Of a DNA stretch of 42,120 nt, positions 11,387 through 27,026 are shown piece by piece (position 1 is the stretch's first letter; every line of letters starts with the position of its first letter). Made by a program: the position numbers and the translations under genes. The notes under the pieces were generated by a model. It was not told the DNA's origin, searched no databases, and saw only the letters and a program-made list of their open reading frames with translations. Source of the stretch: Clostridia bacterium (GTDB lineage Bacteria; Bacillota; Clostridia; Christensenellales; Borkfalkiaceae); the NCBI GenBank assembly GCA_021202395.1, contig JAJQDC010000035.1, forward strand, positions 1-42,120. Reading direction: 5' to 3'.

Positions 11387-12676
11387 ATGAAAAGAATAGC
11401 CGATAAAAGCAAATATAAGGCGCGAATAATGGATGAAAAAGTACAGAAATATTTGGAAACTTTCGGAGCGGTTTGCATTGAAGGCCCTAAATGGTGCGGA
11501 AAGACCTGGATTTCTTCTTATCACGCAAACAGCGAGTATTTAATCGCTGATTCGTCAAATAACTTTCAAAACAGGCGCCTGGCGGAAATGTCGCCCGATC
11601 TGGTGTTAGATGGTGAAACCCCGAGACTAATTGACGAATGGCAAGAGGTGGAAGTGATATGGGACGCCGTTCGTTATGCAGTTGATCAACGCGGTGAGAA
11701 AGGACAATTTATTTTGACTGGTTCGTCTACACCAAAGAAAAAAGAACAGAGGGTGCATAGCGGGGCGGGACGCATAGGAAGATTAAGAATGAGGACGATG
11801 TCTCTTTACGAGTCTGGCGATTCTTCGGGAAAAATTTCCTTAAGGAAACTCTGCGAAGGGAAAATAAATCAAGCATTAACGGGTGAAGTTAGCCTTAGAA
11901 ATCTTGCTAATTATATCGTTCGCGGCGGATTCCCAGGAGCAATGGATTTGCCCATAGATAATGCTCAGTTAATTGCGCAATCATATATCGATGCAATATT
12001 GACGGACGATGCGCAAAGAATTGATGGCGTGAAATATGATATTGAAAAAATGCGCTTATTACTTCGTTCACTTGCAAGAAACGAGAGTACTACGGTAACT
12101 AAGAAAAAATTGACGAGTGATATTAAAGAGACAGATGCAGAATCGGTCGATTACGATACCGTGTCAACCTATCTCGACGTGTTTGACCGCCTGTATTTAT
12201 TGGATAATCAAAAGCCTTTTGCTTCCAATATTCGTTCTTCTGTTCGGGTGAAACAGGCGGAAAAGAGACATTTTTGCGATCCTGCGCTAACTTGCGCGAT
12301 ATTGAAAGCAACGCCTGATAGATTGATTAACGACCTGGAAACGTTCGGCTTCTTATTCGAAGCTCTTTGTGAAAGGGATCTGAAAATTTATGCGGATTCT
12401 TTTGACGCTCAAGTGTTCCATTATCAGGACTATGCAAACAGAGAGATTGACGCGGTTGTTGAATTAAATGATGGGCGCTGGTGCGCTTTTGAAATTAAAC
12501 TCGGGGCAAACCAGATTGACAAGGCGGCTGAAAATCTTACTGATATCCGAGACGCCATAGCGGAAGAAGGGGGTAAAATTCCCTCAGTATTATGCGTGAT
12601 ATGCGGACTGTCAAATGCGGCGTACAAAAGACCTGATGGTGTTTATGTTGTGCCTATAACGGCATTGAAGAATTAA
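11387..12676 (+). CDS. AAA ATPase with DUF4143 C-terminal domain
   Basis: A 429-residue protein. P-loop GPKWCGKT at residues 33-40, Walker B-like LIDEWQ near 83, a sensor-like TGSSTP near 110, then the DUF4143 part, which ends with a PD-(D/E)XK-like pattern (YANREIDAVVEL, then AFEIKLG near 365-375). This AAA_14/DUF4143 family is very common in bacteria and archaea, often mobile and usually without assigned function; a link to DNA is suggested by the nuclease-like fold. It lies just inside the left end of the element with its own repeat-flanked promoter and is separated from the defence operon by about 100 bp. A role in the defence system is possible but not shown. Confidence 0.85.
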   Translation: MKRIADKSKYKARIMDEKVQKYLETFGAVCIEGPKWCGKTWISSYHANSEYLIADSSNNFQNRRLAEMSPDLVLDGETPRLIDEWQEVEVIWDAVRYAVDQRGEKGQFILTGSSTPKKKEQRVHSGAGRIGRLRMRTMSLYESGDSSGKISLRKLCEGKINQALTGEVSLRNLANYIVRGGFPGAMDLPIDNAQLIAQSYIDAILTDDAQRIDGVKYDIEKMRLLLRSLARNESTTVTKKKLTSDIKETDAESVDYDTVSTYLDVFDRLYLLDNQKPFASNIRSSVRVKQAEKRHFCDPALTCAILKATPDRLINDLETFGFLFEALCERDLKIYADSFDAQVFHYQDYANREIDAVVELNDGRWCAFEIKLGANQIDKAAENLTDIRDAIAEEGGKIPSVLCVICGLSNAAYKRPDGVYVVPITALKN

Positions 12677-12772: not shown

Positions 12773-15427
12773 ATGTTTCTTAGCCAAATTTTGGATAATT
12801 ATGTAAAGGATTATCTGATTTATGGGAAAATCAAATATTCAAAAAGCAGTAAAGAGGATGGGGAAAGTTTGCATCCGCTATTTATACTCACGCAATATAT
12901 TATTGATAAATTTATCTCTGAAGGGAATAAAAGAATAGCTATAGTATTACCAGATAACGAATGCAATATATTACCTCTAATTATTGCAAAATATTTTGCA
13001 AATATTCAATATGAATCGAATTATGCTGGTAGTGTACTCGAGGACATTGAGATTGGACAGCATATTAGGTTGGGTAAGGCTGTAGTTGAATTTGGTGGAA
13101 TAATTGATAATGAAGATGAAAAACGCAAGTTAGGGTTATCAAGGAACGAAAAATATATAAAATTTAAAACAGGTAGAAAAGACCAGACTACAGTATATTG
13201 TCCGATAAATGGAGTTCATTATTTATTTGAAAAAACAGAAGCTGCGCTTTCGTTATATAAGGTGTGGAACGGAGAACGAAAAAAGGCAGAAGAGAGAATT
13301 AAGGAATCAAAAAGTGTTATAGATGAATTAAAAATTAAGCGTACTGCACTAAGAAAAACGATAACATTACTATCTGCGAAGAACGAATTTAAAGATTTTA
13401 TGGAATCTATATATGTTTGCGGTAGACGTTTTGAAGATGTCGCTACTTATGGGGAAATAGATTGTGACAGCGAGGAAAAATTCAAACTTTTTAATAAAGG
13501 GAGATTGGATTGTCTTCCGTCTATTTCCGTAACTCATAAAATGGAGGATTTATATTATTTATTAAAAGATAAATGGGCTAGAGAAAAAATATATGCTATT
13601 GTTTCGACAATGGATAAATTTGATGAAATTATAAATAATCCGGATGCGTTTAAGAGAGTACTAAAACATAATGTTCCGTTTGTAGTATTTGTATCTGAAA
13701 GCGATTTTGATGGATGCCCTGTGCTTACTGATTTTGGCTTTGAATTGTGGCATTGGAAACCGTCTACGATGAAGAGTGAAGCCTTTTTGTTGTCTGATGA
13801 AGTTTCTCGTAGTAAAATACAAAGGAAAGAAATTTTTGGTAATTTTTCTGCAAAAATTAATAGAGCGGCTTTGTCGGAATTTTCACTGGAAACGCATAAT
13901 AATAAAAACCTTAAGACAATGGTTAAACTTATCAGTCGGTTATCTAAAGATGCGAATGATGCAGATAATGTAATAAGACAATTAATACGTAAATTTTGGG
14001 CATTTCAAAATAAACTTACGTGGATGACATGTAAAATAGAGAGGGATGTTTTAGATAAATTAAAAAAAGAGTTGCAGGAAATAACGGATATATGGTCACA
14101 GCATAAGCTTTATTATGGGGATCAACAAATTAGCACAATTATTGAGGAAATAATTAAAATATTTAATTTTGTAATTACTGAATCGGTACCGGATAAATAT
14201 TATATGCTATGTAAATTTATAGATAGAATTGCGCAAGAAGACAAAGACATCACAATATTAGTGCCTAACAAATATGAATACGTTCAACAAACGTTTAATG
14301 AAATTAATTTGATAAGGGGATCGTGTAGGATAAAAGTAAGAACTTTGGTTGATTTTTATGAAGTTCAAAGCAAAAATTATGAAAGCACGGATTATTTGAT
14401 TGTTACGTGGTTTGATAAGGATGAGTACATAAAAATAAAACAGACATATTGTTATGATAATTTAGTGTTTACTCTTTATGATTATGAAAACAGGTGGAGA
14501 GAAAATTTTATTTCGAGGTTTGACGAATGCATTCCGCATGAGTCCATCAAGAGAGTTGCTCAAAAAGTTCAGTTCTCTTCAGAGGATATCGCAGATAAAC
14601 CATTTGATAAAATCACATTAAAAACCGATGAGGATTTTGAAGATATTTCGGATTATTCGCTTCCTAGTAAAATTATAAAGTCTACTCTTGGTAATTCGGG
14701 TATAGAACGGGATTCAGCGGAAGCAATTGAGAGTATTCCAATCATTCTTTCTGAAGATAAAATTGCTTATTTTTATCCAACTCATAATGTTATAGATGTT
14801 ACGGCATTATCAAAAGGTGATGGTGATAGACCAACAAAAAAGGATGCAGTCAAGCTAAAAAAAGGAGATAAAATACTTATTCGTCAGAGCGACAGGGATA
14901 TCATTAGAGAAAAAGCAGATATTTTGATGGTTCAAAACGGTGAGTCAGAGCTTAGAGGAAAAGTGGAAATTTGGTTTACGTTGCTTGGCGACTATGCAAA
15001 AGGTAGGTCAATTGCTGATGTATGTAGAGCGCTTAATGCTGAGGGTGGTAAATGTACTTTTCAACAAGTTAGATTTTGGCTTTCTGGAGAAACGATTGTG
15101 CCGAGAGAAAAGGATATTTTAATTGCTATAGGTATTGTTGCGTCTAAAGTGCCGAAACTCAATGAAACGTGTGAGAAATATTTAAGAGCAATAGATGATA
15201 TTTATGAAGTTGGAAGAAAAGTGCAGGGATATCATCAAAGTGCCGGAAGATGGCTCACGAGTGAATTAAAGAATAAGGCACAAGAAATTAAAGCTATCGC
15301 GAATAGCAGAGTTTCTCACGGAGAAGTTGAAGGTATAGGTGAAATTCATATATATACCGTTGAAGAAATTTTAGACAAAGAAATAACGGAACGAGGTAGA
15401 ATTAACAAGTTAGAGGATCTATATTAA
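12773..15427 (+). CDS. drmE: DrmE-like protein, first gene of the defence operon
   Basis: An 884-residue protein with no catalytic motif that I can recognise with confidence. It starts the operon that contains drmA, drmB and a C5 methyltransferase, the position held by drmE in class 2 DISARM, and its size fits. Features: an N-terminal segment IAIVLPDNECNILPLIIAKY (about 55-75) resembling a helicase-like fold without a P-loop, a charged coiled-coil stretch (about 165-205), and a conserved-looking C-terminal region (about 720-800), where SIADVCRALN and VRFWLSGETIVP suggest a helix-turn-helix. Strong AAAGGAG ribosome site. It overlaps the next gene by one base (TAATG), which points to a working pair. 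The DrmE name rests on context plus general resemblance. Confidence 0.6.
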   Translation: MFLSQILDNYVKDYLIYGKIKYSKSSKEDGESLHPLFILTQYIIDKFISEGNKRIAIVLPDNECNILPLIIAKYFANIQYESNYAGSVLEDIEIGQHIRLGKAVVEFGGIIDNEDEKRKLGLSRNEKYIKFKTGRKDQTTVYCPINGVHYLFEKTEAALSLYKVWNGERKKAEERIKESKSVIDELKIKRTALRKTITLLSAKNEFKDFMESIYVCGRRFEDVATYGEIDCDSEEKFKLFNKGRLDCLPSISVTHKMEDLYYLLKDKWAREKIYAIVSTMDKFDEIINNPDAFKRVLKHNVPFVVFVSESDFDGCPVLTDFGFELWHWKPSTMKSEAFLLSDEVSRSKIQRKEIFGNFSAKINRAALSEFSLETHNNKNLKTMVKLISRLSKDANDADNVIRQLIRKFWAFQNKLTWMTCKIERDVLDKLKKELQEITDIWSQHKLYYGDQQISTIIEEIIKIFNFVITESVPDKYYMLCKFIDRIAQEDKDITILVPNKYEYVQQTFNEINLIRGSCRIKVRTLVDFYEVQSKNYESTDYLIVTWFDKDEYIKIKQTYCYDNLVFTLYDYENRWRENFISRFDECIPHESIKRVAQKVQFSSEDIADKPFDKITLKTDEDFEDISDYSLPSKIIKSTLGNSGIERDSAEAIESIPIILSEDKIAYFYPTHNVIDVTALSKGDGDRPTKKDAVKLKKGDKILIRQSDRDIIREKADILMVQNGESELRGKVEIWFTLLGDYAKGRSIADVCRALNAEGGKCTFQQVRFWLSGETIVPREKDILIAIGIVASKVPKLNETCEKYLRAIDDIYEVGRKVQGYHQSAGRWLTSELKNKAQEIKAIANSRVSHGEVEGIGEIHIYTVEEILDKEITERGRINKLEDLY

Positions 15428-17109
15428 TGGCAAAAATGTATCCAAAAGTTTTTCCAGAAGATTCAAACAGTTCTGGGGAACGAAAAGTTTTTGAATACTT
15501 AAAAGAAAATGCGCCGTCAGACTGGATAGTGTTGCATTCTTTTCGGTTGCCTAAACATAAGACGGTTGTCTTCGGAGAGGCGGATTTTGTCGTAATTGCG
15601 CCAAAATACGGGATATTTGTCTTGGAGATAAAGTCTGGCGGAGTAGGATTTGACGGTGATAATTGGATATTTGTTAATAGAAATCAAGAAAAAAGCTATA
15701 AGAAGCGTGGACCGTTTCAGCAGTGTCGTGAAGCGATGTTCGAAATAGAGAGAATTATTGGCGAAAAACTTGGCGATGGCTATAGTAGAACCGATTTGCT
15801 CTACGGATACGGCGTTATTTTTACTGATGAAGACAATTTTCCGTTAACTGCCATAACGGAGGATGAAACGTGGCGTTTGTGTCAAAGGACTGAAACAGTA
15901 GATTATGTTTCATTTATAAAAAAGCTATACAAAAATTTTCTTTTGGAATTAACTCAATTAGGGAAAAGGATTCCCAAAGAATTATCATCAACAATGGCTG
16001 AAACTATAGGAAAAACGTTAAGACCTATAGTTGATTGCATAGTACCGTTGAAAAGTTTTGTAAAGGCAACGGAACAGGATATTATTTCGCTTACGGAAGA
16101 GCAGTATGCCTGTTTAGACGATATAGAAATAAATGATCAAATCGTTATTACGGGCGGGGCAGGTACTGGCAAAACGCTTATTGCAGTTGAAGAGGCGAAA
16201 AGAAGCGGTTCGGATATTAAAGTAGGATTTTTTTGTTATAATAAAAATTTAGCGGATTTTATTAGAAAAAATATTTCAGCGAAAAATATAGAGGTTTATT
16301 CTATACATTCTTTCATGGGACAGATATGTGTCGGGGCGGGTTTAGAAAATGACGGAAGTAAAGATTTTTTTTCGACTACGCTTCCTCACATGGCAAGTAA
16401 AACGGCAAAGGAAAAGGGAATCCTTTTTGATAAAATTATAGTAGATGAATTTCAAGATTTGTGTACCACAGAGTATATAGTCTTTTTGGATACGATATTG
16501 AGAAATGGTTTGGTAGATGGAAAATTTTTGTTTTATGGAGATTTCGCACGTCAGGCAATTTACAATGAATCCGTAACTTTGAATACTTTAAAATCTTTTG
16601 CTTTTTTTGCGAAAAAGCATTTGTCAGTTAATTGTAGAAATACGTTGTATATTGGGAATGAGTTAATAAACGTAACGGGATACGAGGATAAGCAATATCG
16701 ATTAAAGATAATCGGCGAGCCTGTTGATTATTATGTTTGCAACACAATAGAAGAGCAAAGCAAAAAATTAATTGATTGCATAAAAGATTTAAAAAAGAAA
16801 GGATTCAATTCTTCGTCAATTATCGTATTATCATCTAAGCGCAGAGAACGTTCAATTATTAATTTATGCGATAAGGAAAAGTTTATAATCGGCGATTACG
16901 GAGAAGAGCCAGAAGAATATTATGCGATGTTTTCAACTGTTCAAGCGTATAAGGGACTGGAAAGTGAAATTGTAATATTGATTGACGTTGAAGATTATAG
17001 CGATACTCAGTTAATGTATATCGCTATAAGCCGTGCAAGAAGTAAATTAATAGTCTTGGAAACGGAATATGCATCTAAACAAAGAAAAAAATTAACGCTT
17101 AAGAGGTAG
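15427..17109 (+). CDS. NERD-domain nuclease fused to SF1 helicase
   Basis: A 560-residue two-part protein. N-terminal NERD domain (about 17-125) of the PD-(D/E)XK type, with GEADFVVIAP (50-59) and the catalytic EIK at 67-69. C-terminal UvrD-like superfamily 1 helicase: Walker A TGGAGTGKT near 241-249, Walker B IVDEFQDL near 338-345, and motif V/VI region YKGLESE and AISRARSKL near 507-545. It is expected to use ATP to move on DNA and cut it. It sits between drmE and drmA, translationally coupled to drmE. Standard class 2 DISARM has no such gene; here it may take over the effector role of the missing DrmC. Confidence 0.85.
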   Translation: MAKMYPKVFPEDSNSSGERKVFEYLKENAPSDWIVLHSFRLPKHKTVVFGEADFVVIAPKYGIFVLEIKSGGVGFDGDNWIFVNRNQEKSYKKRGPFQQCREAMFEIERIIGEKLGDGYSRTDLLYGYGVIFTDEDNFPLTAITEDETWRLCQRTETVDYVSFIKKLYKNFLLELTQLGKRIPKELSSTMAETIGKTLRPIVDCIVPLKSFVKATEQDIISLTEEQYACLDDIEINDQIVITGGAGTGKTLIAVEEAKRSGSDIKVGFFCYNKNLADFIRKNISAKNIEVYSIHSFMGQICVGAGLENDGSKDFFSTTLPHMASKTAKEKGILFDKIIVDEFQDLCTTEYIVFLDTILRNGLVDGKFLFYGDFARQAIYNESVTLNTLKSFAFFAKKHLSVNCRNTLYIGNELINVTGYEDKQYRLKIIGEPVDYYVCNTIEEQSKKLIDCIKDLKKKGFNSSSIIVLSSKRRERSIINLCDKEKFIIGDYGEEPEEYYAMFSTVQAYKGLESEIVILIDVEDYSDTQLMYIAISRARSKLIVLETEYASKQRKKLTLKR

Positions 17110-17113
17110 ATTT

Positions 17114-20100
17114 ATGGAAACAAGAGAAAAAATACTTGATATCGTCAAAAAAATTCTGATGGGGCCTAATCCGTTACCGCAGTTTATGCAGAAAAACGGA
17201 GAGGAGATTTTGTTCTGCGATTCTCCCTTAAAAACTTATGTTACAGGCGTATTGTTTCCTCAAACAAAAACTACGGAAGGAATTGAAGAAACTGAAAACG
17301 ATGGTACGGAATTTGAATCCGCTATGGAGATCCCAGATGCAACTGTGGGGACAGACGACAGACTTATAGGTGAAAAGAATGTAGCAGAACCTTCGTTGGA
17401 AGCGGAGACTTCTAAAATAAACAATTTTAAGCAATCTGCTATGGGGATAACTTTTTGTTTGCCCGAGGAAGCGAATTTTCTTGACGTAAAAGTTTACGTT
17501 GGAGCGTATGAAGAAAAGATGGCGTATGTTCCCATGGAAAAGAAGGAAGAAAATGGCGAAAGAAAAATTGTTTATAGTGAGAAAGAAAAGAAGTGTTATT
17601 ATAGAAAACAAATAAATTCATTACTACGTTTGGAAAGTAGTCAATTGCCTACAAAAGAGAAAAAACACGTTCCGTATAAATTACTTGATACTGAGGGAAA
17701 ACTAATCGATGGATTGCAATTAACTATAACGTTTAGGCTTAAAAAGGAGAATTTTAATATTTATACAATTACGCTCGTTAACACTAAGCTTTGTGCAGAC
17801 GCGAAACGTGTTTCTCAAGCGGATTGTTGGTTTCAATGTGGATTTAGTATAGAGGCTGATAAAAAGTTGCTTCCTTTGCCTGCTAATTTTTGTGAAGGGA
17901 TTAAAGACGAAGATTATCGGTTGAATTCGCTTCTATATCGTGACGTTAAAACTTACGCTATTGGTCATGGGTGTGCCGCAACATGGGATGATAATGATAT
18001 TCCTAATACAATAACCGCATCGATTATGCCAGAGTATGAAGTAAAGCCAATTGTGCCAACGACATCAAGAGCGCAATTGTCTATGAAACTGTATGCTCAA
18101 AGCAAAGAAGAAACAATTAATGATTTGCAAATGCTTTGCGATGATTATAGGGATTGGATATCAAAAGAAAAGTCAAAATTTGGGAATATTAAAGAAGAAA
18201 AATACAAGGACACCGCTTTAACGCAGATTACATTATGTAACGAATGTTTAAAAAGAATGCTCACCGGAGTAGATCTTTTGAAAACAAATAGTAAGGTTTG
18301 GCAAGCATTTTCTTTAGCAAATAGGGCAATGCTGATGCAACAATTACATTACAAGTTGCCGCTTACAGAATATGAAAGTTATGATTCTAAGACTTTATCA
18401 TTCAAATTGAAAAATGAAATTATAATGCCTGATATTGATAATGAAGAAACTTGGTATAATCGAGAAAAGAATATATATGGTCGCTGGAGACCATTCCAAA
18501 TTGCGTTTATACTTTTAAACCTATACTCTATTTATGATACAAATTCGTCTGAGAGAGATATAGTAGATTTAATTTGGTTTCCTACGGGTGGCGGTAAGAC
18601 TGAGGCGTATTTGGGTTTAACTGCATTTTCTATTTTTATGCGCCGAATAAAAAATCCTAACGATTTAGGCACTACGGTTATCATGCGTTATACGTTGAGG
18701 TTATTGACCGCACAACAGTATGAACGCGCAGCTTCGCTTATATGTGCAATAGAAAAAATACGCTCTGAGAATGAAGAGTTGTTAGGAAAAGAAAGAATTA
18801 CTATTGGTTTATGGGTTGGCGATTCGCTAACAAAAAACAGGTCAACGGATGTAATTAAAAAGATCAAAGATATCAGAGCGGGGAAAGTCAATGAAAATGT
18901 TTCCGTTATTTTGAAGTGCCCTTGGTGTGGTGCGAGTATGGAAACTTTAAAAACCGACAAAACGGCTAAAACGCCTGGATACGAAATTTCGGTTGACAAA
19001 AAACACGTGATTTTCCGCTGTGGTAATGAAAATTGTGATTTTGGAGATGAAGAGTTTCCGTTGCCATTAAACTTATTTGATGACGAAATATATGCTAATC
19101 CTCCTACGTTGCTTTTTGGTACGGTAGATAAATTTGCAATGTTACCATATAGACTGGAAGCAAAAGGTTTGTTTGGTGGGGATAATGAGAGAACGCCTCC
19201 CGAATTAATTATACAAGATGAACTACATTTAATAACGGGACCGTTAGGGTCTTCTGTCGGTCTGTATGAAACGCTTATACATGAGCTGTGTATTAAAAAC
19301 GGTTCAAAGCCTAAGATTGTTGCTTCAACGGCAACGATAAGTCATGCGAAACAGCAATGTAATGCTTTATACGGTTGCGGAGAAGACAAGGTTTTTCAAT
19401 TCCCCGTACAAGGAACAACGTATAAAGACTGTTTTTTTGCGGAAGAAAAGAATGATACAGGTAGAAAATATGTGGGACTATACGGGGCATCGACGTCATC
19501 GTCGGCAACGGCGTCGATTTATACTTTTGCAGCTTTTTTATATGCGGCAAAAGCCGTAGAAGTGGATGACGAAAGTCAAAGAGACGCATATTGGACAAAT
19601 TTAGCTTATTTTGGAAGTATGCGAGAGTTGGGACAGGCCGCTACGTGGTTTATAGCTGATATAAAAGAACATCTGGAAGTAATTTATCGCAATAGATTAG
19701 AATCATCTTTGGATTCAACAAATAGAAGATACGTTTATGAAAATGGCTTAGCCGAATTAACCAGTCGTATGAGCAATGAGGAAATTCCTAAAATTCTTAA
19801 ACGCCTGGAAATAAAGTATAGAAAAGATGAAAAGCGCGCTTTAGACGTTTGTCTTGCTACAAATATGATTTCAGTGGGTGTGGATATTTCTCGTTTGGGA
19901 TTAATGACAGTTACGGGACAACCCAAGTCTATGTCAGAATATATTCAAGCTACTAGTCGTGTTGGTCGTGATAAAAATGCACCCGGTTTGGTCTTTGTTA
20001 TTTATAACACATCAAAATCTAGGGATAAGTCGCATTATGAAAAATTTCAATCTCAACATTCTAAATTGTATTTTAGCGTTGAGCCTACGTCGGTTACTCC

Positions 20101-20521
20101 ATTTTCAAGACCGTTAAGAGAAAGAGCGCTGCCCGCCATTTTTGTTGCTTTACATAGATTTTTTGTTGAAAAGGAAAATAGCGACAATGCAAGACGTGCT
20201 CCTACGCAAAAAGAATATGAAAATATTGTTAATATAATTGTGGATCGGGCGGAAGGAATAGATAGTGCGGAAATAGATGATATTAAACGGCAACTTTATG
20301 AAAAATGGGAAGAATGGAAAGCGTGGAAGCCTGAAAAGTTTCATTCGTTTACCATTAGTGAAAATGCGCCGTTATTATGTATGGCAGGAACTATAAAACC
20401 ATCGTCATGGGACGACAGAGGCTGGGAATCTCCAACATCTATGCGTAGCGTGGATAGAGAATGCGGCTTAACTTGTGGAAAAGTTTTAAGGTTAAAAATG
20501 GAGGATGAAGATGGCGAATAA
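17114..20521 (+). CDS. drmA: DISARM helicase DrmA
   Basis: A 1135-residue superfamily 2 helicase. Walker A is in WFPTGGGKTEAYLG at about 489-502, the DEXH box QDELHL near 700, motif III STAT near 738, and the C-terminal helicase motif ATSRVGRDKNAPG near 944-956. A zinc-ribbon-like insert (CPWCG near 601, CGNENC near 640) lies between the halves. This layout and the PTGGGKTEAY wording are characteristic of DrmA, which with DrmB loads on unmethylated incoming DNA. ATG with AGAGGT upstream; 4-bp gap after the NERD-helicase gene and an 11-nt overlap with drmB, so one operon. Confidence 0.85.
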   Translation: METREKILDIVKKILMGPNPLPQFMQKNGEEILFCDSPLKTYVTGVLFPQTKTTEGIEETENDGTEFESAMEIPDATVGTDDRLIGEKNVAEPSLEAETSKINNFKQSAMGITFCLPEEANFLDVKVYVGAYEEKMAYVPMEKKEENGERKIVYSEKEKKCYYRKQINSLLRLESSQLPTKEKKHVPYKLLDTEGKLIDGLQLTITFRLKKENFNIYTITLVNTKLCADAKRVSQADCWFQCGFSIEADKKLLPLPANFCEGIKDEDYRLNSLLYRDVKTYAIGHGCAATWDDNDIPNTITASIMPEYEVKPIVPTTSRAQLSMKLYAQSKEETINDLQMLCDDYRDWISKEKSKFGNIKEEKYKDTALTQITLCNECLKRMLTGVDLLKTNSKVWQAFSLANRAMLMQQLHYKLPLTEYESYDSKTLSFKLKNEIIMPDIDNEETWYNREKNIYGRWRPFQIAFILLNLYSIYDTNSSERDIVDLIWFPTGGGKTEAYLGLTAFSIFMRRIKNPNDLGTTVIMRYTLRLLTAQQYERAASLICAIEKIRSENEELLGKERITIGLWVGDSLTKNRSTDVIKKIKDIRAGKVNENVSVILKCPWCGASMETLKTDKTAKTPGYEISVDKKHVIFRCGNENCDFGDEEFPLPLNLFDDEIYANPPTLLFGTVDKFAMLPYRLEAKGLFGGDNERTPPELIIQDELHLITGPLGSSVGLYETLIHELCIKNGSKPKIVASTATISHAKQQCNALYGCGEDKVFQFPVQGTTYKDCFFAEEKNDTGRKYVGLYGASTSSSATASIYTFAAFLYAAKAVEVDDESQRDAYWTNLAYFGSMRELGQAATWFIADIKEHLEVIYRNRLESSLDSTNRRYVYENGLAELTSRMSNEEIPKILKRLEIKYRKDEKRALDVCLATNMISVGVDISRLGLMTVTGQPKSMSEYIQATSRVGRDKNAPGLVFVIYNTSKSRDKSHYEKFQSQHSKLYFSVEPTSVTPFSRPLRERALPAIFVALHRFFVEKENSDNARRAPTQKEYENIVNIIVDRAEGIDSAEIDDIKRQLYEKWEEWKAWKPEKFHSFTISENAPLLCMAGTIKPSSWDDRGWESPTSMRSVDRECGLTCGKVLRLKMEDEDGE

Positions 20522-22355
20522 TAAATATTCTATTAGGCGCGATAGTTTAATCAGCCCTTGGGGCGTTGGCGCAATAGTTCCGTTTCCTCATGATGAATCG
20601 TTAATGGTTTCAGGACTTGATTTTTGGTTTGATGAAGATCATTCCTATGAAGATTTTTTAATTAACGATGAACGTTTGTCTAGAAGGCTAGGTGGAAAAC
20701 AATTTGTAATGCCGCCCGATTTTAGAGAATTTTCACAGGATGCACAGCATGCGGAGATGCGTATACCAGCGGTTAGATTTCCTTTATGGCATTACTGCCC
20801 GGTTTGCGGTAATATGGAACAAATCGGAACGGCGGGTGAAAGACAGCGTTGTACGGGTGAAATCCGTAAGACGAACGGTAAAGAAACTTATTGTTTCAAA
20901 AATAAAGGGAAGCCAAAAAATTTGCCAATATTAGTTCCCGAACGTTTTATTGCCGTTTGTAAAAAGGGGCATATAGAAGATTTTCCCGTTATGGAGTGGG
21001 TACACAAAAAGAGTGATAAACCAATTACATCTTCTTGCAAATTGGTAAGAAGTACGGGCGGTAGTTCAGCTTCGCTTTCCGGCATTCGTTATACGTGTAC
21101 GTGTGGAGCGACGGCAACGATGAACGGTGCATTTGGTTGGGATTCTCTTGAAAAAATTGGCTATACCTGTACAGGAAATCAGCCTTGGTTAGGAGCAAAC
21201 CAGAAAGTAGATTGTGGCGAGCCCTTGCTCGTTTTACAAAGAGGTGCTTCAAACGTATGGTTCGCTGACGTTATTAGTTCGGTATATATTCCTTGGTTGC
21301 CAAAATATAAAAATCAAAACACTAAGGAATGCATTGAAAGAGGTGTTAAAAAGTTTGCATCTTCTAGAACAAACGGTTCAGTTGATGAAGTATTAATAAA
21401 AAAGTTCGTTTTACAAAACCAAATGATAGACGAAGACATTGATGACGAGCAGGCATTTGATGAAATAATTGCGACTTTAAATAATACTCGGGAAGGGGAT
21501 ACACCCCAAAGCGAAGACGAGTACAGAAAACAAGAATTCGATGTGTTAACGAGTACGGCCGGGAACTCTAAAGATGAGTTATACTGTATAAATTATAGCG
21601 CTACAGAATACGAAAAACTTGATTTTTTAAAAAGCATTTCTTTGGTGCATAAATTGCGTGAAACAAGAGTTTTTCAAGGATTTAAGAGAATAACGCTGGA
21701 CGATACTAGTTTTTCCGCTCAAATTTCCGTTAAAGAGATTTCTTGGCTTCCGGCAGTTAAAAATAGCGGGGAAGGTATTATGTTCGAGTTTGACTACGAG
21801 AAACTTTATCGTTGGTCTTCTGAAGAAAAAATAAGTAAACGCGTTAATATTATTGAACAAAACATGAAGAATACAGGTAAATTGACTACCGAAAAACTTA
21901 ATCCAATTTATATTTTATTGCATACCTTTGCGCATTGCTTAATAAACGCTTTATCTAGTGAAAGTGGATATTCAAATGCGTCAATAAGGGAAAGAATTTA
22001 TTGCTCTAAATATTTAGAGAAGGAATCTTCTCAAATGGCTGGAGTGCTTATATATACTGCTTCCGGAGATTCAGAGGGTTCGCTTGGCGGATTAGTTAGA
22101 CAAGGCTTGCCTGGAAGGATAGAAAACGTAATAAAAATGGCAATTAGTGAAGCAAAATGGTGTGCTGCCGACCCAGTATGTATTCAAAGCACTGGACAAG
22201 GACAGTATGGTTGTAATTTGGCCGCTTGTCACAATTGCGCATTGCTACCGGAAACCTCCTGTGAAAATAAGAATATGTTGTTGGATAGAGGACTATTAAT
22301 AGGAACGTTGGACGATACGTCGATAGGATATTTTAGTGGTTATGAAGAAGATTAA
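20511..22355 (+). CDS. drmB: DISARM protein DrmB (DUF1998)
   Basis: A 614-residue protein. The N-terminus IRRDSLISPWGVGAIVPFP is typical of DrmB. Several Cys pairs follow (CPVCG near 100, CTCG near 196), and the C-terminal DUF1998 domain has LLHTFAHCLINAL, YTASGDSEGSLGGLVRQG and a Cys cluster AACHNCALLPETSCE. In DISARM, DrmB forms a complex with the DrmA helicase. The frame opens at an ATG at 20505, but GGAGG ends immediately before it; the ATG at 20511 has correct spacing and is preferred. Overlaps drmA by 11 nt and the methyltransferase gene by 14 nt. Confidence 0.87.
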   Translation: MANNKYSIRRDSLISPWGVGAIVPFPHDESLMVSGLDFWFDEDHSYEDFLINDERLSRRLGGKQFVMPPDFREFSQDAQHAEMRIPAVRFPLWHYCPVCGNMEQIGTAGERQRCTGEIRKTNGKETYCFKNKGKPKNLPILVPERFIAVCKKGHIEDFPVMEWVHKKSDKPITSSCKLVRSTGGSSASLSGIRYTCTCGATATMNGAFGWDSLEKIGYTCTGNQPWLGANQKVDCGEPLLVLQRGASNVWFADVISSVYIPWLPKYKNQNTKECIERGVKKFASSRTNGSVDEVLIKKFVLQNQMIDEDIDDEQAFDEIIATLNNTREGDTPQSEDEYRKQEFDVLTSTAGNSKDELYCINYSATEYEKLDFLKSISLVHKLRETRVFQGFKRITLDDTSFSAQISVKEISWLPAVKNSGEGIMFEFDYEKLYRWSSEEKISKRVNIIEQNMKNTGKLTTEKLNPIYILLHTFAHCLINALSSESGYSNASIRERIYCSKYLEKESSQMAGVLIYTASGDSEGSLGGLVRQGLPGRIENVIKMAISEAKWCAADPVCIQSTGQGQYGCNLAACHNCALLPETSCENKNMLLDRGLLIGTLDDTSIGYFSGYEED

Positions 22356-23475
22356 AGCGATAGATCTTTTTTCCGGTTGCGGTGGGGTTTCCATAGGATT
22401 GACGCAATCTGGTTTTGATGTGACTTGTGCTGTAGAAATTGATGATGCGGCAGTGAAAGCATACAAGGGATATCATTTATTAAAAAATGTCAATGTAATA
22501 AAGGGTGATATTTGTGATATTAAAGGAAATGAAATTTTGAAGGCAGCTGGATTGCGAACGGATGATTTGTACTTGCTTGCAGGATGTCCACCTTGCCAAA
22601 AATTTTCTATGCAAAATCGGAGAAACAATTCAGACGAAAAAGACATTGATGAAGTAAAAAAACTTTTAATGCAGTTTAAGAGAATAATAAAAGAAGTATA
22701 TCCACCATTCGTTTTAATGGAAAACGTTCCTGGCATTAAATCTTCGTTCGATGGCAGGATATTAAAAGAATTTATCCTGGATTTAGAGAATGAAGGGGCG
22801 GTAAACAGCGAACGCTATTATGTGGTTTCAAGCGTTGTCAATGCAGCCGATTATGGCGTACCACAATTAAGGAAACGCTTTGTTCTACATGCAGTTAGAT
22901 GTGATATTTTGGAAAGAATGAAAGGATTAAATTTAATGCTTACGTTGCCTTTGCCAACGCATAGTAAAAAAGGGGAAAATGGCAAACAAAAATGGGTAAC
23001 TGTTAGAGAGACTTTTGAGGGATTACCTAAAATTAAGGCAGGAGAACGTTATAATGATGATAAGATTAAGAATCATTATTGTGCAAATTTATCAGATAAA
23101 AATATTTTAAGGATGCGTATAATTCGGGAAAATGGTGGAACAAGGACAGCGTTGCCGCAAAAGCTAGTTTTAAAATGTCATACTACATATTCGGGTCATA
23201 CGGATGTTTATGGCATAATGAATCCAGATGCTCCGGCACCCACAATGACCGGCGGTTGTTTGAGTTATTCTAAGGGTAGATTTGGACATCCGTTTGAAGA
23301 CCGGGCGATTTCCGTTAGAGAAGCTGCTAGGATTCAAACATTCCCAGACGATTACGTGTTTGGGGAAAGCTTAACGAAAGCAGCGTTAGAAATAGGTAAT
23401 GCCGTTCCTATAAAATTAGTACAAGCAAGCGGTAATGTTTTTATGGAACTGATATTGCAATTAATGGGGAAATAA
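22342..23475 (+). CDS. drmMII: DNA C5-cytosine methyltransferase (DrmMII-type)
   Basis: A 378-residue-class enzyme with all key C5-MTase motifs: I, DLFSGCGG (about 8-15); IV, GCPPCQKFS with the catalytic Cys near 85; VI, ENVPG near 127; VIII, QLRKRF near 174; and IX/X, REAARIQTFPDDY then GNAVP near 352. It transfers a methyl group from S-adenosylmethionine to C5 of cytosine, marking host DNA as self. In class 2 DISARM this role is filled by DrmMII. ATG 22342 is preferred over a GTG two codons earlier. The recognition sequence cannot be read from the target-recognition region. The Vsr gene downstream fits a 5mC enzyme. Confidence 0.88.
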   Translation: MKKIKAIDLFSGCGGVSIGLTQSGFDVTCAVEIDDAAVKAYKGYHLLKNVNVIKGDICDIKGNEILKAAGLRTDDLYLLAGCPPCQKFSMQNRRNNSDEKDIDEVKKLLMQFKRIIKEVYPPFVLMENVPGIKSSFDGRILKEFILDLENEGAVNSERYYVVSSVVNAADYGVPQLRKRFVLHAVRCDILERMKGLNLMLTLPLPTHSKKGENGKQKWVTVRETFEGLPKIKAGERYNDDKIKNHYCANLSDKNILRMRIIRENGGTRTALPQKLVLKCHTTYSGHTDVYGIMNPDAPAPTMTGGCLSYSKGRFGHPFEDRAISVREAARIQTFPDDYVFGESLTKAALEIGNAVPIKLVQASGNVFMELILQLMGK

Positions 23476-23481
23476 TCTATT

Positions 23482-24195
23482 ATGGATGATGAAGATAGGT
23501 TTAGTTTTAAAAAATTTTGGGGACCAGCAGATATAAAGCCATATGTTACATACTCAAGGCAGGGAGAACACTTTTGTATTTATTGTGGGGAAATCTCAGA
23601 TACAAGAGAGCATATTCCATCCAAAGTTTTCTTAAGTAAGCCTTATCCGGATAATTTAGCGATTTTGCCAGCGTGTAAGGAGTGTAATAATAGCTTTTCC
23701 GATGACGAGTTATATACTGAAGTATATATTGATTCCTTAAAATATTTTAGTGGGTATAGTTCTGAGTTGCGCGAAGAAAACAAAGAACGGATTTATAAAA
23801 ATACGGCGTATTTTGATGCGCATAGAGATTTTGCTGAGTATTATTCATCGGAACTATTTCCTAATAATGAAAAGATAAAAAAGATTTTAAGAAAATTAGC
23901 AATTGGTCACATGATATATGAGTTGAGTGAAGGATATAGTGCGGAAGAAAATGATGTGGAATTAGTTTCATTACAATATAAATTTTTGTTTGATTTATCC
24001 AAAGAATTTAGGGTAAATTTCAATAATTTGATTTTAATGAATGATAAAAAGTTGCCGCTAATAGGGTCTAGGGTGTTTGATAAAATAATGGTCATAGAAC
24101 CCGCCTTTCAAAGTACTGATTCTGAAGATGTTAAAAAAATCCATTTGTTGTCAAGATATGGACTAATGTGCAAGATGGGAATTATCGTTATGTAG
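23482..24195 (+). CDS. HNH endonuclease-like protein, C-terminus frameshifted
   Basis: The open frame gives 237 residues. The HNH core has zinc-type Cys pairs C32-x2-C35 and C65-x2-C68, with H44 in REHIPSK and CNNSFSDDE at about 68-76. After a run of seven A at 24133-24139 the frame reaches a stop, but a second frame continues with sensible protein (AAT CCA onward: NPFVVKIW..., then YRYVAWYENDGTFHIKIV) to a TGA at 24306-24308, overlapping vsr as other genes in this operon do. One extra A would restore about 275 residues. Either a real mutation, slippage, or a sequencing indel. A restriction effector of the defence operon is plausible; not part of the usual DISARM set. Confidence 0.75.
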   Translation: MDDEDRFSFKKFWGPADIKPYVTYSRQGEHFCIYCGEISDTREHIPSKVFLSKPYPDNLAILPACKECNNSFSDDELYTEVYIDSLKYFSGYSSELREENKERIYKNTAYFDAHRDFAEYYSSELFPNNEKIKKILRKLAIGHMIYELSEGYSAEENDVELVSLQYKFLFDLSKEFRVNFNNLILMNDKKLPLIGSRVFDKIMVIEPAFQSTDSEDVKKIHLLSRYGLMCKMGIIVM

Positions 24196-24308
24196 CATGG
24201 TATGAGAACGATGGTACTTTTCATATTAAGATTGTTATTCATGATTTTTTGTATGCAGAAGTAATTTTTAAACAAAGAGATTTAGATGGGAGACATATTT
24301 ACAAGTGA
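24140..24308 (+). pseudogene. Out-of-frame remainder of the HNH protein
   Basis: A continuing coding sequence in another frame after the A7 tract, ending in RDLDGRHIYK and TGA at 24306-24308. No start of its own. Read as the true C-terminus of the HNH protein. Confidence 0.65.
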
Positions 24309-24696
24309 AAAGCGCTCTGAGGTTATGAAAGCCATAAAGAGTAAAAATACTAAAACAACTGAAATGAAAATGATTTCCATTTTTAAAGAATTAGGGATAA
24401 AAGGTTGGCGTAGAACCTATCCACTAATTGGAAAGCCTGATTTTGTTTTTCCCAAGCAAAGGATAGTAGTTTTTGTTGATGGGTGCTTTTGGCATGGCCA
24501 CAATTGCAGAAACGTTACTCCAAAAATCAATGCTGATTTTTGGAATAAAAAACATGAGTATAATGTGGCACACGATGCAGAAGTAACAAATCAATTAATA
24601 AATAAAGGCTGGAAGGTTATTAGAATTTGGGAGTGTGAGCTGAAGAATAAAAATAGGGAAGTGTTAATGAAAAAATTGCTTGGACTATTAGAATAA
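24286..24696 (+). CDS. vsr: Very short patch repair endonuclease (Vsr)
   Basis: 136 residues, the usual Vsr length. TSEKRSEVMKAIKSKNTKTT at the N-terminus, the catalytic Asp in KPDFVF (about 50-55), then VFVDGCFWHGHNC (63-75) with the metal-binding Cys/His. Vsr nicks next to the T of T:G mismatches that arise when 5-methylcytosine deaminates, so it protects the sites modified by the methyltransferase two genes upstream. The start overlaps the extended HNH frame. It is the last gene of the operon, before a terminator at 24715-24740. Confidence 0.9.
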   Translation: MGDIFTSEKRSEVMKAIKSKNTKTTEMKMISIFKELGIKGWRRTYPLIGKPDFVFPKQRIVVFVDGCFWHGHNCRNVTPKINADFWNKKHEYNVAHDAEVTNQLINKGWKVIRIWECELKNKNREVLMKKLLGLLE

Positions 24697-26045: not shown

Positions 26046-27026
26046 GTGCAAAACCTTTTTGACGATGAGGACTACGCGGAACAGTTTAAGCAGACCGCCG
26101 CGCGTTTCGGTAAAGGCGGCGATAAGGACGAGAGAAAATATTATCACTTTAAATTATCTCCCGCACGGGATGAACACGCCAACCCGTATATGGTACAGGA
26201 ATACGCCAAGGCTTGCGCCGAGGAAATGTTTCCAGATTGCGAGTGCGTTATTGCGACCCATACAGACACGGACACCGTACACGCGCATATTATCGTAAAC
26301 GCTGTTAATCCCATCACGGGAAAGAAATTACATATATCGGGCGGGGACTACGCTAAATTAAAAGATATGGCAAACGACATAGGCGTCGAGTTTGGATATA
26401 CACCTTTGGACTTCAGGAAGAAAGCGGATATAAACCGCACCACCGCCGAAAGGCAGATTATATTAAAAGGCGGCACAAGTTGGAAAGAAGATTTACGAGA
26501 GGTCATAGAAGAAGCAAAGCAAACAGCCACCACGGAAACGGAGTTTATAGAACACCTTAAACTTTACGAAGTGGAAATTAAACGCAACGGGCAAGATTAT
26601 TCATATCTGCACCCGCAAAGACAAAAAGCCGTCCGAGGGACAACGCTCGGACAAGATTATACAAAGACGGAGGTTTTAAATGTCATTACAAAACATAAAG
26701 ACGGGCGAAACGGCAACGCCGCTCGCTCAATTACAGAAGAACAACGAGATATTTGTGGAAAAGACGGAGAACGCCCTGCTGAAAGAAGCGTTAGCTTTAT
26801 CGAACGAGAAATGCAACGCCTTAATAGAACGGCAGAACTCGCTCGTGCAGGAATTGACCCAGGAAGTGAGCAGCCTGAAAAACGAGAACAGCAGGTTGGT
26901 AAGGCAACTGCAACAGCAGACGGACAAAGTAACAGAAGAACTCAAGAATATAGTACGGGACGAGAGGAACTTCAAGGTGGAGATAAGCCGAAGCCTAAAA
27001 GAAGATTTAGCGATTTCAGCAAATGA
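26046..27026 (+). CDS. MOBP-type relaxase, N-terminus damaged
   Basis: The frame from a GTG at 26046 gives 326 residues with the relaxase metal motif HTDTDTVHAHIIVN (about 71-84). Homologous-looking protein continues upstream in the same frame (LLAYITRIDKARYISVQN, including the likely catalytic Tyr region) to an in-frame stop at 25968-25970 without any start codon. A good GGAGG at 25947-25951 precedes ATA GAA AAT in a different frame (NRNRPITY), so the gene seems to have lost its ATG and gained a frameshift near 26000. Relaxases nick oriT and lead the strand to the recipient. Starting at GTG would lack the Tyr, so activity is doubtful. Confidence 0.75.
   Translation: MQNLFDDEDYAEQFKQTAARFGKGGDKDERKYYHFKLSPARDEHANPYMVQEYAKACAEEMFPDCECVIATHTDTDTVHAHIIVNAVNPITGKKLHISGGDYAKLKDMANDIGVEFGYTPLDFRKKADINRTTAERQIILKGGTSWKEDLREVIEEAKQTATTETEFIEHLKLYEVEIKRNGQDYSYLHPQRQKAVRGTTLGQDYTKTEVLNVITKHKDGRNGNAARSITEEQRDICGKDGERPAERSVSFIEREMQRLNRTAELARAGIDPGSEQPEKREQQVGKATATADGQSNRRTQEYSTGREELQGGDKPKPKRRFSDFSK

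What the first reader, a model, noticed from the sequence alone, without database searches (positions are those of the whole stretch)
12773..24696. DISARM-like operon without drmC, with an added NERD-helicase, HNH protein and Vsr
Seen: seven genes, closely packed or overlapping: DrmE-like, NERD nuclease-SF1 helicase, DrmA, DrmB, C5 methyltransferase, HNH, Vsr. Known: class 2 DISARM is drmE, drmA, drmB, drmC (phospholipase-D nuclease) and drmMII. No HxKx4D phospholipase-D motif was found in any gene here. Inference: the NERD-helicase, coupled to drmE, and/or the HNH protein may replace DrmC as the nuclease, making a distinct DISARM subtype. Vsr would repair deaminated 5mC produced by the system's own methyltransferase.
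Basis: partly seen in the sequence, partly recalled or inferred. Interest (0 to 1): 0.85.

Follow-up and report, generated by a model that had tools for sequence, protein, structure and literature searches.

The report
DISARM variant with NERD helicase-nuclease
A bacterial gene cluster of the DISARM anti-phage type lacks the usual DrmC nuclease and instead carries a combined nuclease-helicase; the same pairing recurs in distantly related bacteria, which offers a testable answer to how DISARM without DrmC might destroy phage DNA.

Summary
The seven genes are there as described: DrmE-family protein, NERD nuclease-SF1 helicase, DrmA, DrmB, C5-methyltransferase, HNH-like protein, Vsr. No DrmC was found in the window. 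The NERD-helicase recurs: of 18 genomes with a strong DrmA hit among 398 sampled, 7 carry it by drmAB (two across contig ends), and it recurs on plasmids and viral contigs. A DrmC-type protein never shared its locus (0 of 11 plasmid records, 0 of 19 tree loci), but clade structure confounds this, and 3 of the 19 have another PLD-domain protein nearby. Its active-site residues are intact in 15 of 15, and its divergence tracks DrmA about as closely as DrmB does. HNH was seen in no other DrmA locus; Vsr and methyltransferase are exchangeable companions. The system lies on an island of about 21.7 kb, absent from 7 of 7 relatives compared. Best reading: a drmC-less DISARM variant whose degradative arm is the NERD-helicase (inferred). 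Lacking drmC is itself known to be common (PMC9142583). The literature searches showed no paper describing the combination; several lists were capped.

The parts
12773..15427 (+). DrmE-family protein, 884 aa, divergent; no Walker A pattern found
   Evidence: NF038316 168 bits; aligned with 8 relatives; motif scan
15427..17109 (+). NERD nuclease (PD-(D/E)xK) fused to SF1/UvrD-like helicase, 560 aa; overlaps drmE by 1 bp
   Evidence: PF08378, UvrD_C_2; D53, E67, K69 and Walker A/B conserved
17114..20521 (+). DrmA, YprA-family SF2 helicase, 1135 aa
   Evidence: NF038325 890 bits, PADLOC DrmA 709 bits; matches solved DrmA 7s9v, E 1.4e-129
20505..22355 (+). DrmB, MZB/DUF1998 zinc protein, 616 aa
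   Evidence: NF038324 435 bits, PF09369
22336..23475 (+). C5-cytosine DNA methyltransferase, 379 aa (GTG start)
   Evidence: PF00145, TIGR00675; nearest relative among fetched loci is the MTase beside drmE in L033, 56% identity
23482..24195 (+). HNH-like protein, 237 aa; accessory, not found in the other DrmA loci fetched
   Evidence: no family hit; motif alignment; relatives; profile scan
24286..24696 (+). Vsr mismatch endonuclease, 136 aa
   Evidence: TIGR00632 117.7 bits, PF03852
11387..12676 (+). DUF4143 AAA ATPase (PADLOC PDC-S01), 96 bp before drmE; probably not part of the system
26046..27026 (+). MobA/VirD2-type relaxase of the carrying island
   Evidence: PF03432
27777..29468 (+). large serine recombinase of the carrying island
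   Evidence: PF00239, PF07508, PF13408
9358..31030 (.). genomic island carrying the system (ends approximate), between a galactofuranosyltransferase-like gene and glf
   Evidence: relatives L071 and L072 have about 60 bp in its place; 7 of 7 fetched relatives lack it

Best explanation
This is a drmC-less DISARM-type restriction system in which a NERD nuclease-SF1 helicase is the likely degradative partner of the DrmA-DrmB core. Proposed working: (1) the C5-methyltransferase marks host DNA (enzyme family shown; site and role inferred). (2) DrmAB loads on unmodified DNA with 5' single-stranded overhangs, as reported for Serratia DrmAB in PMC9142583, and opens it (here inferred by homology). (3) The NERD-helicase, coupled to DrmE and DrmAB, engages the opened DNA and cuts it with its PD-(D/E)xK site while moving by its helicase (inferred from intact motifs, conserved linkage and co-divergence). 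(4) DrmE is a scaffold or sensor of unknown fold (inferred). (5) Vsr repairs T:G mismatches left by deaminated 5-methylcytosine in the host (inferred). (6) The HNH-like protein is an optional accessory nuclease that came with the methylation module (inferred).
For: Same order DrmE-NERDhel-DrmA-DrmB in L020, L027, L028, L079, and NERDhel-DrmA-DrmB behind a first gene with no DrmE hit in L006, L012, L101+L039. 7 of 18 strong-DrmA genomes in a 398-genome phylum sample carry NERDhel (6 of 17 without the window's). 11 of 60 listed plasmid DrmA records have NERDhel within 10 kb; 3 of 17 viral contigs. NERD D and E-x-K and Walker A/B intact in 15 of 15; also D53, E67, K69, K249 in L079, L082, L083. 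Co-divergence DrmA-NERD r 0.79 over 17 loci, 0.91 in architecture A (8), 0.96 in B (9), against DrmA-DrmB 0.92, 0.95, 0.94 and DrmA-MTase 0.05 in 12 loci. DrmC-type protein and NERDhel in one locus: 0 seen. The host genome has two PLD-family proteins, a polyphosphate kinase and a twin-PLD 530-aa protein that looks like a cardiolipin synthase (32.5 bits to the DrmC profile), and no free-standing DrmC.
Against: No experiment. drmC is dispensable in tested DISARM (PMC9142583), so a substitute may not be needed. The lack of NERD+DrmC loci is confounded by clade: on the DrmA tree the independent-pairs test has 1-2 informative pairs of 8 and is not significant. 3 of 19 NERD loci have other PLD-domain proteins nearby: L027 (796 aa PLD-helicase, opposite strand), L039 (909 aa PLD-helicase, opposite strand), L079 (269 aa PLD protein before the MTase). 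15 of 44 tree loci have neither nuclease. NERD-helicases also occur away from drmAB (L013, L014, L047, L096, L097), so they could act alone. NERD also correlates weakly with MTase (r 0.32, p 0.025). The window's DrmE is only 20-23% identical to its relatives.
Confidence: 0.57

Rival explanations
1. The NERD-helicase is an independent single-gene defence (Nhi-like nuclease-helicase) that merely sits in the operon; DrmAB with DrmE works without any nuclease.
For: PADLOC matches the protein to a NERD-helicase of reverse-transcriptase systems (150.6 bits) and weakly to Nhi (28.3 bits); NERD-helicases occur away from drmAB (L013, L014, L047, L096, L097); drmC is dispensable (PMC9142583).
Against: 1-bp overlap with drmE and a 4-bp gap to drmA; co-divergence with DrmA about as high as that of DrmB within each architecture; place kept between drmE and drmA in deep relatives.
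Confidence: 0.23
2. The C5-methyltransferase, HNH-like protein and Vsr form a separate type II restriction-modification module, with HNH as the cutting enzyme, lying next to a DrmE-NERDhel-DrmAB core. This can be true together with the best explanation for the core.
Against: MTase overlaps drmB by 20 bp; its nearest relative seen (56%) is beside drmE in L033; 15 of 19 NERD loci have a C5-MTase hit nearby; HNH relatives in L059, L060 and L062 have no MTase or Vsr hit nearby.
Confidence: 0.35
3. DISARM here uses a host nuclease in trans, as proposed for drmC-less operons, and the NERD-helicase has another task such as unwinding or signalling.
For: PMC9142583 proposes recruitment of alternative PLD nucleases; the host has one twin-PLD protein with a weak DrmC-profile hit.
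Against: No free-standing DrmC-like protein among the PLD matches in the 96.5%-complete host genome; the NERD active site is conserved in 15 of 15.
Confidence: 0.1

Closest known systems
DISARM class 2 (drmE-drmA-drmB-drmC-drmMII; gene list from the finding and recall, Ofir 2018 not held)
   Same: DrmA, DrmB, a DrmE-family protein and a C5-methyltransferase in one operon
   Different: no drmC; extra NERD-helicase between drmE and drmA; DrmE divergent (no PADLOC or NF038323 hit); HNH-like protein and Vsr added
DISARM loci lacking drmC, and DISARM-like operons carrying the RmuC protein ShdA (PMC9142583 passages and Discussion; PMC10270631 passages)
   Same: DrmAB core without drmC; precedent for another nuclease-type protein embedded in DISARM-like operons (about 70 homologues)
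   Different: here it is a NERD-SF1 helicase fusion, not RmuC
McrBC-associated DISARM-like cassettes (PMC11090510, passages)
   Same: YprA-like helicase plus DUF1998 cassette near other restriction genes; loci L041 and L042 carry DUF2357 genes beside NERD-DrmAB
   Different: the passages read do not mention a NERD-helicase; no McrBC was found among the window proteins scanned
TALON (PMC12458937, passages and figure legends)
   Same: YprA-family helicase with a NERD nuclease
   Different: TALON has an ARMADA-like YprA with TPR-CSD and TBP proteins; here DrmA and DrmB are separate genes and no such partners were found
Nhi and NERD-helicases of RT systems (PADLOC names; Nhi function recalled)
   Same: nuclease plus helicase in one protein
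   Different: operon with DrmE-DrmAB; no reverse transcriptase among the window proteins scanned

Membership tests
DISARM | DrmA helicase | tested here: met
   NF038325 890 bits, somewhat under the equivalog cut-off of 950; PADLOC DrmA 709 bits; solved DrmA 7s9v E 1.4e-129
DISARM | DrmB (DUF1998) as a separate gene | tested here: met
   NF038324 435 bits, cut-off 240
DISARM | DrmC phospholipase-D protein | tested here: not met
   no hit; by the drmABC definition it is therefore DISARM-like, though PMC9142583 says drmC is often missing and dispensable
DISARM | DNA methyltransferase in the operon | tested here: met
   PF00145 193 bits, overlaps drmB by 20 bp
DISARM class 2 | DrmE | tested here: inconclusive
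   family model NF038316 168 bits (cut-off 80), but no NF038323 or PADLOC DrmE hit and PF24957 below cut-off
DISARM | DrmAB loads 5'-overhang unmodified DNA and protects from phage | not testable with these tools
   reported for Serratia DrmAB (PMC9142583)
TALON | TPR-CSD and TBP genes, undivided YprA | tested here: not met
   no such family among the window proteins scanned; DrmA and DrmB are separate
Type II RM module (MTase-HNH-Vsr) | HNH protein is a site-specific endonuclease matching the MTase | not testable with these tools
   motif residues conserved; activity unknown

The most novel reading that the evidence does not exclude
DrmAB is a loading platform with exchangeable nuclease arms. 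A large part of DISARM has done without the PLD nuclease DrmC and, more than once, paired with a NERD nuclease-helicase that now acts as its main DNA-destroying enzyme, making drmC-less DISARM a processive helicase-nuclease system.
Probability: 0.42. Interest if true: 0.75.

Novelty: new variant of a known kind. Interest (0 to 1): 0.56.

Why it matters
How DISARM degrades DNA when drmC is dispensable and often missing is called a mystery in PMC9142583, which suggests borrowed PLD nucleases. This work points to an in-operon candidate that keeps its active sites, co-diverges with DrmAB and recurs in the window's own phylum and in Actinomycetota, Deinococcota and Pseudomonadota records, and in [Muricauda] (Bacteroidota, recalled). 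It makes the question testable by one active-site mutant, and gives an annotation rule: look for NERD-helicases next to drmAB.

Tried and rejected
HNH as DrmC replacement: rejected; a profile of six HNH relatives hits no other DrmA locus fetched; the relatives read lie beside other genes.

A hidden PLD domain in the operon: rejected. The only H.K....[DEN] string in an operon protein of the window is in DrmA and ends in E.

Exclusivity of NERD and DrmC as proof of replacement: not accepted. Fisher p 0.011 (60 plasmid records, near-duplicates included, DrmC sought with two queries only) and 0.002 (44 tree loci), but the tree-based independent-pairs test is not significant, and three NERD loci have other PLD-domain proteins nearby.

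'At least three recruitments' of NERD: tested and lowered. DrmAB-linked NERD-helicases fall in three groups of the NERD tree; the best tree needs 3 changes of linkage, well-supported branches force 2, direction unknown.

TALON membership: rejected. Attachment repeats of the island: none longer than 10 bp in the stretches compared. Terminator-like (12 found, 9.0 expected) and promoter-like (66 found, 55.9 expected) sites are weak evidence.

Structure: the DrmE job (alignment A4) was never accepted and the HNH job did not finish, so no fold evidence is used. A profile of the DrmE alignment matched no solved structure at E<=1.

Full report
OBSERVATION. The seven genes are present as written, with gaps of -1, 4, -17, -20, 6 and 90 bp. 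Profile searches support DrmA, DrmB, the NERD-SF1 helicase, the C5-methyltransferase and Vsr clearly, and DrmE as a divergent family member. The HNH-like protein has no family hit; it and five aligned relatives share H44, P46, K48, C65, C68, N69 and 13 more columns. No DrmC was found.

IS THE CASSETTE CONSERVED? A genome-contig scan with the NERD-helicase returned one relative, in [Muricauda] lutisoli (L006), where MTase, a 922-aa protein, NERD-helicase, DrmA and DrmB lie in a row. In Rhodococcus opacus pROB02 (L012) a 507-aa protein, NERD-helicase, DrmA and DrmB are followed by Vsr, a NaeI-type enzyme, an annotated HNH protein (not a homologue by profile) and a C5-MTase. Among 398 genomes of the window's phylum 60 matched the DrmA model at E<=0.001, most of them weakly; 18 reached 370 bits or more for a piece or the joined pieces. 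Read from the fetched loci, 7 of the 18 carry the NERD-helicase (G000, G494, G517, G563, G602, G635, G689), 4 a PLD DrmC (G800, G818, G822, G834), 6 neither (G487, G802, G817, G831, G835, G858), and 1 is cut by a contig end (G806). In G517 and G635 the genes stand at contig ends; the joins are likely, not shown. G487, G817 and G835 belong to a very distant branch.

PLASMIDS AND VIRAL CONTIGS. 86 plasmid records matched the window's DrmA; 60 were listed. Of the 60, 11 have a NERD-helicase within 10 kb, 20 a DrmC, none both, 29 neither. The 11 include near-identical records (about 8 distinct), and one, Burkholderia aenigmatica (L099), is an interrupted locus with a distant DrmA relative. Of 17 viral-contig loci, 3 carry the NERD-helicase, 5 a PLD protein next to DrmB, none both; L080, L087, L088, L093 and L095 are cut or fragmentary. 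L079 has MTase-AIPR-DrmE-NERDhel-DrmA-DrmB with 47% identical DrmA. Phage records had no DrmA match.

TWO ARCHITECTURES. A: NERD-helicase upstream of drmA, behind a DrmE-family gene in the window, L020, L027, L028, L045/L036 and L079, and behind a gene with no DrmE-profile hit in L006, L012, L041 and L101/L039. B: NERD-helicase downstream of drmB, with a UvrD-type helicase as first gene in L021, L024/L046, L038, L040, L042, L043, L082 and L083. L034 has Vsr-MTase-DrmE-DrmA-DrmB-NERDhel: the NERD-helicase stands where drmC would be. On the DrmA tree the window's clade (window, L006, L027, L028, L036, plus L079 in the larger tree) is all NERD-bearing, support 100/99 with 37 rows and 98 with 44 rows. 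In the NERD tree with 8 rows not counted as DrmAB-linked, the linked proteins fall in three groups; L034's nests with L047 (not DrmA-linked) at 100/96. The best tree needs 3 changes of linkage and well-supported branches force 2; direction is unknown.

IS IT PART OF THE MACHINE? NERD D, E-x-K and Walker A/B are intact in 15 of 15 aligned DrmAB-linked proteins; helicase motif VI deviates in L038. D53, E67, K69 and K249 also hold in L079, L082 and L083. Distance correlation DrmA-NERD is 0.79 over 17 loci (permutation p 0.0002; L028 and L039 left out), 0.91 in A (8) and 0.96 in B (9, L034 included), beside 0.92, 0.95 and 0.94 for DrmA-DrmB. DrmA-MTase is 0.05 (12 loci, p 0.34), DrmA-Vsr 0.42 (10 loci, p 0.016), NERD-MTase 0.32 (12 loci, p 0.025). 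Shared descent alone could give this, but the MTase in the same loci does not share it with DrmA.

AGAINST. On the 44-row DrmA tree (19 NERD, 10 PLD, 15 neither; 12 fetched DrmA loci left out: L018, L019, L030-L032, L037, L049, L080, L087, L088, L093, L095) the independent-pairs test of NERD against PLD has only 1-2 informative pairs of 8 and is not significant. Three of the 19 NERD loci have PLD-domain proteins that are not DrmC-type: L027 (796 aa, PLD plus helicase, opposite strand), L039 (909 aa, PADLOC PLD_Helicase, opposite strand) and L079 (269 aa, upstream of the MTase). DrmC in plasmids was sought with two queries only, so 'neither' may hide some.

OTHER PARTS. With unfiltered ORFs a C5-MTase hit lies near 15 of 19 NERD, 8 of 10 PLD and 6 of 15 other loci; Vsr near 10, 5 and 3 (the filtered count gave 13, 8, 7 and 10, 4, 3). 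L035 has an MTase-Vsr fusion. These are DISARM-wide companions. HNH relatives were found in 9 plasmid records and in 2 of the 397 other genomes searched, one weak. None of the 5 neighbourhoods read (L057, L059-L062) has a DrmA hit; two have MTase and Vsr.

SETTING. GC is 0.32-0.39 over the system against 0.40-0.50 in most flanking windows. L071 and L072 have about 60 bp in place of window 9358-31030; 7 of 7 fetched relatives lack the island (7 of the 40 other genus genomes with a glf match were fetched). It carries a relaxase and a serine recombinase. In 101 genomes of relatives (the window's included), only the window's own has a full-length NERD-helicase match.

MECHANISM. By homology to Serratia DrmAB (PMC9142583, passages and Discussion read), DrmAB opens unmodified 5'-overhang DNA. 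That paper leaves the nuclease open. The most economical reading is that the NERD-helicase does this work here. This is inference.

NOVELTY. Searches showed no paper describing NERD with DrmAB; some searches listed only part of their hits, and for most papers only the listing was seen. Passages were read of PMC12458937, PMC9142583, PMC11090510, PMC10952713, PMC12839542 and PMC10270631. PMC12458937 mentions many uncharacterized DISARM-like classes and NERD only with TALON; its supplements were not read. Verdict: a real, recurrent variant of DISARM, undescribed as far as searched.

Noticed in passing
window 9358-31030: A low-GC island of about 21.7 kb with relaxase and serine recombinase sits between a galactofuranosyltransferase-like gene and glf; two relatives have about 60 bp there.
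   Followed up: partly
L035:11128-12594: C5-methyltransferase and Vsr in one 488-aa protein beside a DrmE-DrmA-DrmB locus.
   Followed up: no
[not shown]
   Followed up: partly
L079:1069-5663: A 269-aa PLD-domain protein, an MTase and an AIPR gene stand before drmE in a NERD-type locus on a viral contig.
   Followed up: partly
L048:13925-15298, L092:14927-16450, L052:13973-15058: SF1 helicases with no NERD hit directly after drmB (two with DUF5710), perhaps further exchangeable partners of DrmAB.
   Followed up: partly
L021:9865-15655: An Hsp70-like gene and two genes of unclear family upstream of a UvrD-DrmA-DrmB-NERDhel locus.
   Followed up: partly
L096:1127-7689 and L097:1-6740: NERD-helicases directly after very large DUF3883 or helicase genes: the module is used by other systems too.
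   Followed up: partly
window 11387-12676: DUF4143 ATPase of the PADLOC candidate family PDC-S01 just upstream of drmE.
   Followed up: no
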